Source: Cytospora piceicola
Lineage: Eukaryota > Ascomycota > Sordariomycetes > Diaporthales > Cytosporaceae
DNA length: 64,000 nucleotides
Direction of reading: 5' to 3'
NCBI GenBank assembly: GCA_023375675.1
Contig: JALQBC010000010.1
Location: forward strand, 1-64,000
The notes under the pieces: generated by a model
What the model was told of the DNA's origin: nothing
Seen by the model: only the letters and a program-made list of their open reading frames with translations
Database searches by the model: none
Shown: positions 14,831 to 17,294 of the stretch, piece by piece
Numbering within the stretch: the stretch's first letter is position 1
Layout of the letters: every line of letters starts with the position of its first letter
Program-made: the position numbers and the translations under genes

Positions 14831-15840
14831 TTACCCAGCTACTACGTTAGTGGGGTACAGGCCCGAGAGGAACTGATATTGGCCCGGCACCAGGGCTCGC
14901 TGGCGAGCCCACGTGTCCAGGCTGTCCCACTTCCGACAAGTAGCGTGTTTACTTGTCTTCAATTCCATATTGATCGGGTGGTGTTTGTCGTTCAGCCATT
15001 CAGCTGTATATAAAGCCGTGTTGGCGTGGCACATGAGAGCTTGACGAATCGCATCGATATAATGGTCTGAAAGAAAACAGTGAATTTAACCTCTTATCTT
15101 GGACCTCTCAGCACCGGAGGGGGGACTAGACCACATACCGGTTTGTCCTTTACTTAGCATCTCGGGGATTGTATTGTCGGGCGCCAGAAGTGGACCGTAA
15201 TAGTCCCAGTGCACGACTTCAAGTATATTGTTGAGGCTGTGCAGGTGATGAGTCACGCCCGTGATCGCGGTGTAGTCTCCTCCATCAACTTGGATGAGGT
15301 GTGTCAAATTCTCACCAAGCCAAATCAATTCATAACTTGTGACTCGAAGATTGTCCGCTACCACATAGGTTCAGTCTTTGATCGGGATCACATGTTCCTT
15401 ACCAATATAGGAGATGGGTCTGACGGACCGAACAAGAGGTCCTCCCAAGGATTGTCGAACTCGGTAGCTGGAGGTGTAGTCCAGATATGGGTGAAAGCTG
15501 TCCACTCCTTCCTCTCTTCATACTCCAAAGTTCCTGGCGGAATAAGGCCTACAGATGAATGTTAGACTGGCATATGGAACATCAGTGTGGTGAGCCTATT
15601 GAGCTGGTTGTCGCTGAAACAACTTCGAGATCTCCCAGCCATACTAACGGTGAGGTTGATTGTTTCAATTATGGCAACGTAGGATAAGAGCAGTAATATT
15701 GCAAGAGACCATATGTGAACACGACATCATTGCTTAGTTGGCTGACGCAAGGCATGCTGAAATTGTGTTGTGTGATCGTCTCCATACTCGGCCTCTTGGT
15801 CCAGCATAGGATGCTTACAGTCTTCGTCGTAGTCTCTCAT
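14831..15840 (-). pseudogene. UstYa-like (DUF3328) oxidase gene with one in-frame stop and altered HxxHC motifs
   Basis: Four exons (15645-15840, 15429-15548, 15139-15357, 14831-15066) keep one frame over 257 codons, the normal length for UstYa proteins. The layout is typical: an acidic cytosolic N-terminus, one transmembrane helix (SLAILLLLSYVAI), a luminal part with PWEDLL, then the two signature regions. UstYa-family proteins catalyse oxidative cyclisation or hydroxylation of RiPP cores in the secretory pathway. Here the two HxxHC motifs read H-H-L-H-S and T-D-H-Y, so both Cys are replaced, while A-L-M-C-H-A-N and A-L-Y-T-A-E-W-L are well kept. Codon 38 (15727-15729), just before the helix, is TGA, and no AG acceptor lies between it and the helix, so no intron can remove it. 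The intron 2 donor (GTCCGT) is weak. Recently inactivated copy, or a sequence error at one base. Confidence 0.72.
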
Positions 15841-16800
15841 TGCGGATATTGAAGCGACTGGACATGTACGCTCGGATAGTCGACCAGGTACTAGTGGCAG
15901 AATGAGTTTAACGTTGGCCTAAGGAGGTGACAGCTTTCAGGTAGCCGGAAGTTCAAGCTATTACCGTCTGCCTCAGTGGTGGCACAATAGACCAATGTCC
16001 AGGAAGGCATCAAAGGGGTGATCTATTTGAGGTTGGCTTGATGATTGAACCGTGGGGGGGATTGCAACTCCAGCAGTGTGACGGTTTCATCAGTGGCGGT
16101 GCGGAGTTGTTGGACCCGAAGCATGATACGACTGGAGGTATTATGATCCAATTCTTGGCAGTTGAAGTTTGCAACCTTTGAGCTATCAGCAACTACCCGC
16201 CTAATCGTTCCCTCCGCTGGCAGTCCATGGCCAATGCCTGTTCTGTGCACATATGCACGCTTCAAATTACTGCACGGCCGTCCAACCTTCACCGCTACAT
16301 TCCCAAAGAGACGCGGCCAACCCACCTAAATGGTTATCAATATCCAATAGTTGATGACAAGGGAAATCCAGGACGAAACCGTAAATATATAGCCGTGGCC
16401 TAGACCTCCTTCCAGATTAAACCACTAGTTGACCCGCCTGATCCAAAAACATGAGCAGCAGCGACTCATCCCTCCCTGCATTGTAACGCAGCAGAATAGC
16501 TATAAGGTGCAGATACAATATTGGACAAGATTGGGATAGTTGCATCGGAAATCTTATCCGGGAGATGAGTTCCGGGATTTTAGATATGACTACTGTGACA
16601 AAGCTGCATTGGTCAACCACCTAAAGAGCTGGCTTCCCATGGCGTCAAACCGCCACATGCGGGACCGGACAGACATCCGGAACGAGAACCTTTGCTGTGG
16701 CTCTTCATTTCGATCCGATGGAATATTACAGCATGTCCAACCTAGTCAGGAAAATTCTTCGGAGTATAAGGACTTCTGTTTATCTCTGATAACCACACAA
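15841..16800. other. Intergenic region between divergent UstYa-like and precursor genes
   Basis: About 1.1 kb separates the UstYa-like start (15840, minus) from the precursor start (16942, plus), so it should hold both promoters. A minus-strand frame at 16023-16325 and another at 16417-16620 (with a segment LHLIAILLRYNAGRDESLLL) look protein-like, but I could not assign them to a family or splice them together. They may be debris of a further gene. Confidence 0.4.
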
Positions 16801-16809
16801 AATCAGATA

Positions 16810-16819
16810 TTATATATAT
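16810..16819 (+). promoter_or_regulatory. TATA-like element upstream of the precursor gene
   Basis: A TATATATA run lies about 125 bases before the ATG at 16942, followed by a pyrimidine-rich stretch around 16850-16900. This is plausible core-promoter architecture for a fungal gene. No transcript data support it. Confidence 0.35.
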
Positions 16820-16941
16820 CGAGTTTACAGCGTCCTGTATCAATACAGCGATCTTTCTACTTCGTTTAGTCCTCTACTATCTGGGCATCAAGGCTTCCCC
16901 TTGCAACTCTCCTGCGAATATTTTAATACAACATCGCAACC

Positions 16942-17294
16942 ATGCAATTGAGATTACTCCTATTCATTTTTATAGGATTATTAGCCGGGGCGGCTCCTGT
17001 CCCCGACGGTACGTTCATCTATACTCATGGGACGAGTCACGACACAAGTGACACTTCGTAGGCATCAGCCTCCATACAGTTAGCTCAAAAGACCACGATG
17101 TTATGTTGGGGAAGCGTAAAATCTTCACTCACTTTGTTCCCACAACTGGGGAGGATGAAGTACACAGACCTGATGATGGTTCGGAGGACCATGATGGCAA
17201 GTTGGCGAAGCGGCATATAATATTCACTCACCTCGTTCCCACATTTGGGGAAGATATGCAGAAATCGCTGATGGCTCGGAGGGTCTCAATATAA
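16942..17294 (+). CDS. Candidate secreted RiPP precursor with two Kex2-type core repeats
   Basis: Exon 1 (16942-17008) and exon 2 (17062-17294), joined across a 53-base GTACGT...GTAG intron, encode 99 residues. Residues 1-18 are a clear signal peptide (hydrophobic run, AGAA cleavage region). Two homologous blocks follow: residues 33-54 and 65-87, each starting DHD and then a dibasic KR (40-41, 72-73), followed by KIFTHFVPTTGED or HIIFTHLVPTFGED. A final RR lies at 95-96. Acidic spacers, KR sites and near-identical cores repeated after a signal peptide are the design of dikaritin/KEP precursors processed by Kex2. The neighbouring UstYa-like gene supports this. Cores hold aromatic (F), His and Thr residues that could be oxidised or crosslinked. 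The alternative is a secreted multi-peptide effector or signalling peptide without modification. It is too short and too unlike known precursors to name. Confidence 0.72.

What the first reader, a model, noticed from the sequence alone, without database searches (positions are those of the whole stretch)
14831..17294. Candidate undescribed dikaritin-type RiPP locus: Kex2-repeat precursor beside a UstYa-like gene
A 99-residue protein with signal peptide, acidic spacers and two KR-preceded near-identical cores (KIFTHFVPTTGED, HIIFTHLVPTFGED) lies divergent from a UstYa/DUF3328 gene. That pairing defines ustiloxin/phomopsin/asperipin-type pathways. The core (FTH-VPT-GED) matches no fungal RiPP core I know. 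The sequence shows the repeats, dibasic sites, signal peptide and family motifs; product formation is inference.
Basis: partly seen in the sequence, partly recalled or inferred. Interest (0 to 1): 0.88.

Follow-up and report, generated by a model that had tools for sequence, protein, structure and literature searches.

The report
Fungal peptide precursor beside broken UstYa
A fungal gene for a secreted precursor carrying two copies of a conserved short peptide (IFTHxVPT) sits head-to-head with a UstYa-type peptide-modifying gene that looks damaged here, so it appears to be a new family of a known kind of fungal peptide pathway, probably decaying in this genome.

Summary
The precursor is real. 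The spliced 99-residue protein is in the window as described. Its core is conserved: a 66-aa ORF from an unnamed source (P0002) and a hypothetical protein of Cytospora mali (P0004) each carry two copies, and all six cores keep IFTH-x-VP. C. mali reads straight through the predicted splice junction.

The UstYa call holds as homology (PF11807, E 1.6e-15), but the gene looks broken. An in-frame stop precedes the membrane helix, and three of six residues of HxxHC(x)nHxxHC are absent, both cysteines included. A relative, P0003, 73% identical, keeps HHLHC. His/Cys-to-Ala mutants of the family enzyme CctR were inactive (PMC12435403, passages). The precursor's tail is out of frame relative to its relatives, past both cores.

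The pairing is unlikely to be chance: my scan found seven precursor/UstYa pairs in 23 UstYa neighbourhoods of this genome, all head-to-head, 1.06-1.65 kb apart.

Verdict: a new core family of dikaritin-type locus, probably decaying here. Product formation was not tested.

The parts
16942..17008 (+). Precursor gene, exon 1: signal-like stretch MQLRLLLFIFIGLLAGA and start of the propeptide
   Evidence: homologous start in C. mali P0004
17009..17061 (+). Predicted 53-nt intron, GTACGT...CGTAG
   Evidence: C. mali P0004 is continuous across the junction (APARDGRHLQT against APVPDGISLHT)
17062..17294 (+). Precursor gene, exon 2 with both cores and stop codon
17118..17156 (+). Core 1, KIFTHFVPTTGED, after LGKR
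17214..17255 (+). Core 2, HIIFTHLVPTFGED, after LAKR
17256..17294 (+). Tail after core 2; another frame over this stretch reads ADGSEGLNITK, resembling the ADGSEDPNAKK and VGGSEDPNAKK of the relatives, so the tail is out of frame relative to them
   Evidence: frames; relatives
15841..16941 (.). Divergent intergenic region of about 1.1 kb
15730..15840 (-). UstYa-like gene, N-terminal frame from the ATG at 15840 (MRDYDEDCKHPML...)
15727..15729 (-). In-frame stop between the N-terminal frame and the membrane helix
15645..15726 (-). UstYa-like gene, membrane-helix exon (CRVHIWSLAILLLLSYVAII...); no in-frame ATG and no AG acceptor between the stop and the end of this exon
15429..15548 (-). UstYa-like gene, next exon
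15139..15357 (-). UstYa-like gene, exon with altered motif 1, HHLHS at 15250-15236
   Evidence: PF11807 16.6 bits alone; P0003 73% identical over 71 residues, with HHLHC
14831..15066 (-). UstYa-like gene, last exon, with altered motif 2 (QT from the previous exon, then DHY; HY at 15064-15059)
   Evidence: PF11807 E 7.8e-13, 49.2 bits

Best explanation
By ancestry this is a two-gene, dikaritin-type unit: a secreted precursor whose two IFTHxVPT cores are cut free by Kex2-type proteolysis, head-to-head with a UstYa-family copper oxidase that would have modified the core (exact chemistry unknown). In this genome the UstYa copy has decayed (in-frame stop before the membrane helix, three of six metal-site residues changed) and the end of the precursor is out of frame. 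The precursor can still encode both cores. It therefore most likely yields nothing modified, or at most a linear peptide, while relatives keep a more intact version. Shown: sequence anatomy, homology, core conservation, motif loss, repeated head-to-head pairing in the genome. Inferred: Kex2 cleavage, modification of the core in relatives, loss of enzyme activity here.
For: Precursor gene and intron. Two homologues with two cores each; the six cores keep I-F-T-H and V-P in 6 of 6 and the T after VP in 5 of 6 (counted by eye). UstYa profile match. Stop and motif changes. P0003, 73% identical over 71 residues, reads HHLHC and KGHS where the window has HHLHS and KGQT. Of the 35 other UstYa hits in the genome, read by eye, 20 of 21 that cover motif 1 keep its Cys and 28 of 28 that cover motif 2 keep its Cys. 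CctR His/Cys-to-Ala mutants lost activity (passages of PMC12435403). Seven precursor/UstYa pairs in 23 neighbourhoods, all divergent, 1,061-1,650 bp between precursor frame and nearest UstYa hit, each with a signal-peptide-like start on the same strand.
Against: No transcript, proteomic or mass-spectrometry evidence. The neighbours of P0002 and P0004 could not be read, so conservation of the pair outside this genome is not shown; P0002 and P0003 share a source label (lgn) but lie on different contigs. The four exons after the stop are otherwise open for 218 codons, so decay would be recent or incomplete. The PF11807 match of the middle exon alone is below cut-off. No precursor was found by the scan in 16 of the 23 UstYa neighbourhoods. 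No control regions away from UstYa genes could be fetched. One other UstYa hit in the genome also lacks the motif 1 Cys (C54:37860).
Confidence: 0.66

Rival explanations
1. Functional dikaritin-type pathway: the gene is translated despite the apparent stop (assembly error or unseen splicing), and the altered motifs still work or do different chemistry, making a modified IFTHxVPT peptide.
For: The last four exons are open, with GT...AG introns; core and KR sites are kept in the precursor; three of the six metal-site residues remain.
Against: No in-frame ATG and no AG acceptor between the stop and the helix. Both Cys and one His of the copper site are gone; Ala mutants at these residues inactivated CctR. 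None of the 28 other UstYa hits that cover motif 2 lacks its Cys (by eye).
Confidence: 0.15
2. Trans-modification: the local UstYa is dead but another of the roughly 28 UstYa gene loci in the genome acts on the cores.
For: 28 UstYa gene loci after merging exon hits within 1 kb; the best-scoring paralogue is on C14, 38% identical.
Against: That paralogue has its own precursor next to it with an unrelated core, and the listed paralogues are only 27-44% identical in the matched parts.
Confidence: 0.12
3. Unmodified secreted peptide: the core works as a linear Kex2-released peptide (signal or effector-like) and the UstYa neighbour is incidental. (Overlaps with the best explanation as to the product here; differs as to ancestry, so the odds are not exclusive.)
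For: In Umemura's survey 78% of Kex2-repeat proteins have no DUF3328 gene among the 15 closest genes, and this core has no Tyr, whereas 65.6% of DUF3328-linked ones have it (section text). The cores stay conserved although the UstYa here is damaged.
Against: Head-to-head pairing in 7 of 7 pairs found in this genome, unlikely for an incidental neighbour.
Confidence: 0.2
4. Chance repeat in non-coding DNA.
For: None beyond the absence of transcript data.
Against: Homologues in two other sources with conserved cores, one of them full-length with the same start and junction; no such hit in 1.5 Mb of shuffles.
Confidence: 0.01

Closest known systems
Dikaritins (ustiloxin, phomopsin, asperipin-2a type; UstYa/DUF3328 plus Kex2-repeat precursor)
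   Same: Signal-like start, KR-separated repeated core with acidic spacers, adjacent UstYa-family gene. One DUF3328 gene found in the window, as in asperipin-2a.
   Different: Two repeats; core without Tyr; UstYa motifs degenerate and frame interrupted; no tyrosinase or methyltransferase match at E up to 1e-4 among 111 open frames scanned.
Kex2-processed repeat proteins (KEPs; Umemura 2020, PMC7329392, abstract and sections 7 and 13 read)
   Same: Secreted, repeated segments between dibasic sites.
   Different: The survey required at least 3 repeats of at least 8 residues; this has two.
Cytospora mali VM1G_04711 (P0004, hypothetical protein, 95 aa)
   Same: Colinear: signal-like start, APxxDG junction, two IFTHxVP cores, DGSED spacer.
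   Different: First core preceded by KKHG rather than KR; C-terminus differs; its neighbours could not be read here.
CctR (DUF3328 copper hydroxylase of cyclochlorotine; passages of PMC12435403)
   Same: Same family by PF11807/DUF3328; two-motif layout.
   Different: CctR has both HxxHC motifs and needs them; the window copy keeps 3 of 6 residues.

Membership tests
Dikaritin-type locus | Secreted precursor with repeated cores between Kex2 sites | tested here: met
   Kex2 cleavage itself is inferred; signal peptide judged by hydrophobicity and the recalled A-x-A rule, no SignalP
Dikaritin-type locus | UstYa/DUF3328 gene beside the precursor | tested here: met
   PF11807 hit C2:14897-15292, 61.7 bits, cut-off 25; 1,650 bp from the precursor
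Dikaritin-type locus | UstYa with intact HxxHC(x)nHxxHC | tested here: not met
   HHLHS and QTDHY; compare P0003 HHLHC
Dikaritin-type locus | UstYa with an open frame including the membrane helix | tested here: not met
   in-frame stop 15729-15727
Dikaritin-type locus | Core modified (cyclised/oxidised) product | not testable with these tools
   no metabolite data
Ustiloxin/phomopsin subtype | Tyrosinase gene in the cluster | tested here: not met
   no tyrosinase among Pfam hits (E up to 1e-4) of 111 of the 191 listed open frames of at least 85 aa; shorter exons were mostly not scanned, so a tyrosinase of short exons could be missed
KEP (Umemura definition) | At least 3 repeats of at least 8 residues between dibasic sites | tested here: not met
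   two repeats; definition read
IFTHxVPT precursor family (proposed here) | Homologous precursor with two IFTHxVP cores in another source | tested here: met
   P0002 (partial) and P0004 (full-length)

The most novel reading that the evidence does not exclude
The IFTHxVPT precursor has been freed from its cyclase: the cores and Kex2 sites are kept while the partner UstYa has lost its copper site and its start, so a former cyclic-peptide locus is turning back into a source of linear secreted peptides. This would be the reverse of the linear-to-cyclic route proposed for Kex2-repeat proteins in Umemura 2020 (abstract).
Probability: 0.2. Interest if true: 0.6.

Novelty: new member of a known kind. 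Interest (0 to 1): 0.42.

Why it matters
It adds a core family without tyrosine that also occurs in a named fungus (Cytospora mali, as a hypothetical protein), and shows a case where precursor and modifying enzyme may be coming apart. It also gives a simple search rule from one genome: the seven precursor/UstYa pairs found are all head-to-head within 1.06-1.65 kb, with a signal-peptide-like start upstream of the repeats, in most cases apparently in a separate short exon (inferred). Such a rule would catch two-repeat precursors that the three-repeat rule of the survey would miss.

Tried and rejected
Chance repeat: rejected by homologues and shuffles. Alpha-pheromone precursor: no Pfam match at E up to 1 for the precursor, and in Umemura's survey all but three pheromone-type precursors lacked DUF3328 genes nearby (abstract). 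RIP as the cause of the damage: the RIP index is negative over both genes (-0.38 and -0.59), although 1-5 kb, 6-7 kb and 13-14 kb are RIP-like. RNA families: none over gathering score in the window.

Literature: no paper held IFTHLVPT, FTHLVP or FTHFVP; two hold IFTHLV and were seen only as listings with unrelated titles. VM1G_04711: no paper (which in effect ran one spelling). Strings from five of the six sister precursors (not the C20 one): no paper. Umemura 2020 main text: the single 'fth' match appears to be a footnote mark run together with 'Those', not a core. Le Marquer 2019 main text: none. Supplementary tables could not be read, so the family may be listed there. A search joining Cytospora with RiPP terms gave 130 papers, of which I saw 15 as listings and opened none for this question. 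A search for divergent pairing gave 6,233 papers, of which the 10 listed look unspecific; PMC6237848 among them was not opened.

Scan choices: seven of 13 hits were kept as precursors; dropped were one alternative frame each in L011 and L017, two in L022, the plus-strand hit in L024 (judged the antisense) and a low-complexity hit in L030. The L024 strand is therefore my judgement. Signal-peptide control: in a 250-nt stretch at the 5' side of the repeat frame, 6 of 7 precursors have a candidate, against 177 of 3000 random stretches (with A/L-P after it: 6 of 7 against 44 of 3000); L022 misses because its signal-like start lies further inside its open frame. For L021 the candidate I take was second by hydrophobicity in the wider scan.

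Full report
What is there. The window is the start of contig C2 of a 43.6-Mb, 99-contig assembly with no relatives held. Exons 16942-17008 and 17062-17294, joined over a 53-nt GT...AG intron, encode the stated 99 residues. The protein begins with a hydrophobic signal-like stretch ending AGA|APVP, has KR at residues 40-41 and 72-73, and carries KIFTHFVPTTGED and HIIFTHLVPTFGED with acidic spacers.

Homologues. A search of 5.8 billion proteins returned two: the window's own ORF and P0002, a 66-aa ORF on a 1,540-base contig of source 'lgn'. Searching with the alignment of both added P0004, Cytospora mali VM1G_04711, 95 aa, a hypothetical protein. P0004 is colinear from the first methionine (MQL...AAP..DG...) and runs through the predicted splice junction, which supports the intron. 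All six cores keep I, F, T, H, V and P, and five of six keep the T after VP (counted by eye). So the core is conserved and the family is real. The window differs after core 2: another frame gives ADGSEGLNITK, resembling ADGSEDPNAKK of C. mali and VGGSEDPNAKK of P0002. The tail is thus out of frame relative to its relatives, downstream of both cores.

The UstYa-like gene. PF11807 matches C2:14897-15292 minus at E 1.6e-15, 61.7 bits, cut-off 25. By pieces, the last exon alone gives 49.2 bits and the middle exon 16.6 bits, below cut-off. Introns at 15644-15549, 15428-15358 and 15138-15067 leave 218 open codons and a stop from the membrane helix on; the second has an unusual donor (GTCCGT). Upstream, the frame that starts with the ATG at 15840 meets a TGA at 15729-15727. 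Between it and the helix there is no in-frame ATG and no AG acceptor. The two HxxHC motifs read HHLHS and, across the third intron, QTDHY. P0003, a 92-aa ORF of source 'lgn', 73% identical over 71 residues and itself a PF11807 match (34 bits), reads HHLHC and KGHS at these places. Among the other 35 hits of the genome (read by eye), 21 cover motif 1, of which 20 keep the Cys (exception C54:37860, HQFHY) and 19 keep HxxHC in full (C79:406410 reads YQLQC); 28 cover motif 2 and all 28 keep the Cys, 25 of them as HC. The passages of PMC12435403 that I read say that the motif forms a two-copper site and that alanine substitutions of its His and Cys abolished CctR activity. I conclude that the enzyme is probably inactive here; an assembly error could explain the stop but hardly three motif changes as well.

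Is the pairing meaningful? I fetched the surroundings of the UstYa hits, about 2.4 to 5 kb on either side (28 gene loci merged at 1 kb, 23 neighbourhoods merged at 10 kb). A scan for single frames with two KR-type-preceded similar stretches gave 13 hits, of which I keep seven as precursors: the window; C2:117605-117967 (GEEDEAWVQAASKR); C27:454424-454723 (DSEDAVQKGYKR); C72:71118-71357 (GSPVPPIVDGGIEIEKR); C20:83444-83782 (EELYGPNQDLYS); C1:230231-231163 (QYFHVAGDVLDKR, many copies); C14:2121994-2122269 (ANFETDPMLQVGEN). The other 16 neighbourhoods gave none that I kept. Each of the seven lies 1,061 to 1,650 bp from a UstYa hit, and by the strands all seven pairs are head-to-head. If four arrangements were equally likely, seven of seven would have a chance of about 6e-5 (my arithmetic; the L024 strand is a judgement). 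All seven have a signal-peptide-like start on the same strand; in a 250-nt stretch at the 5' side 6 of 7 have one, against 177 of 3000 random stretches. No sequence away from UstYa genes could be fetched as a control; within the window's own 64 kb the precursor is the only hit.

How it most likely works. From recalled knowledge of dikaritins and: the precursor enters the secretory pathway, Kex2 cuts after KR, and membrane-anchored UstYa-family copper enzymes, whose catalytic domain is proposed to lie in the organelle lumen, oxidise the core. In ancestors or relatives the IFTHxVPT core would be modified in this way; the chemistry cannot be named, since the core has no Tyr, the residue whose ring is joined in ustiloxins, asperipin-2a and phomopsins. 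In this genome the enzyme half is damaged, so the likely outcome is no modified product. The neighbouring genes give no clear cluster: an alpha/beta hydrolase with an S33-type match (11986-13205, minus), a short-chain dehydrogenase piece (10752-11108, minus), an MFS transporter (6777-8522, plus), a rhodopsin-like membrane protein piece (18461-18637, minus, below cut-off) and a flavin reductase-like protein (20832-21845, plus). No tyrosinase or methyltransferase was seen at E up to 1e-4 among 111 of 191 listed open frames.

Novelty. The family is a new core type of a known kind. I found it in no paper text by core string or, for the C. mali protein, by name, and not in the main texts of two KEP surveys by the string FTH; their supplementary tables were out of reach. 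The less usual part is that the enzyme seems to be lost before the precursor.

Noticed in passing
G000 C2:117605-117967 (L011:606-968, minus): Precursor with six GEEDEAWVQAASKR repeats, head-to-head with a UstYa gene at C2:119607, about 100 kb from this locus on the same contig.
   Followed up: partly
G000 C1:230231-231163 (L022:2232-3164, minus): Long precursor with more than ten PEAAKQYFHVAGDVLDKR-type repeats and a signal-like start in the same frame, head-to-head with a UstYa gene having both HxxHC motifs.
   Followed up: partly
G000 C72:71118-71357 (L020:7119-7358, plus): Precursor with four SPVPPIVDGGIEIEKR-type repeats beside a UstYa gene; its signal-like start begins MQLR as in the window.
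   Followed up: partly
G000 C27:454424-454723, C20:83444-83782, C14:2121994-2122269 (L017, L021, L024): Three further precursor/UstYa pairs with unrelated cores, all head-to-head (strand of the C14 one by judgement).
   Followed up: partly
G000 C54:35376-38126 (L014): UstYa-like hits with degenerate motifs (HQFHY, SSPC, HASYC) and stops inside one hit: perhaps another decayed UstYa locus.
   Followed up: no
window 1-5000, 6001-7000 and 13001-14000: AT-rich, RIP-like stretches (GC down to 0.10, index up to 1.43), the first at the contig end, possibly subtelomeric.
   Followed up: partly
window 29349-30494 (minus): GH18 chitinase-like frame with two CBM1 cellulose-binding matches.
   Followed up: no
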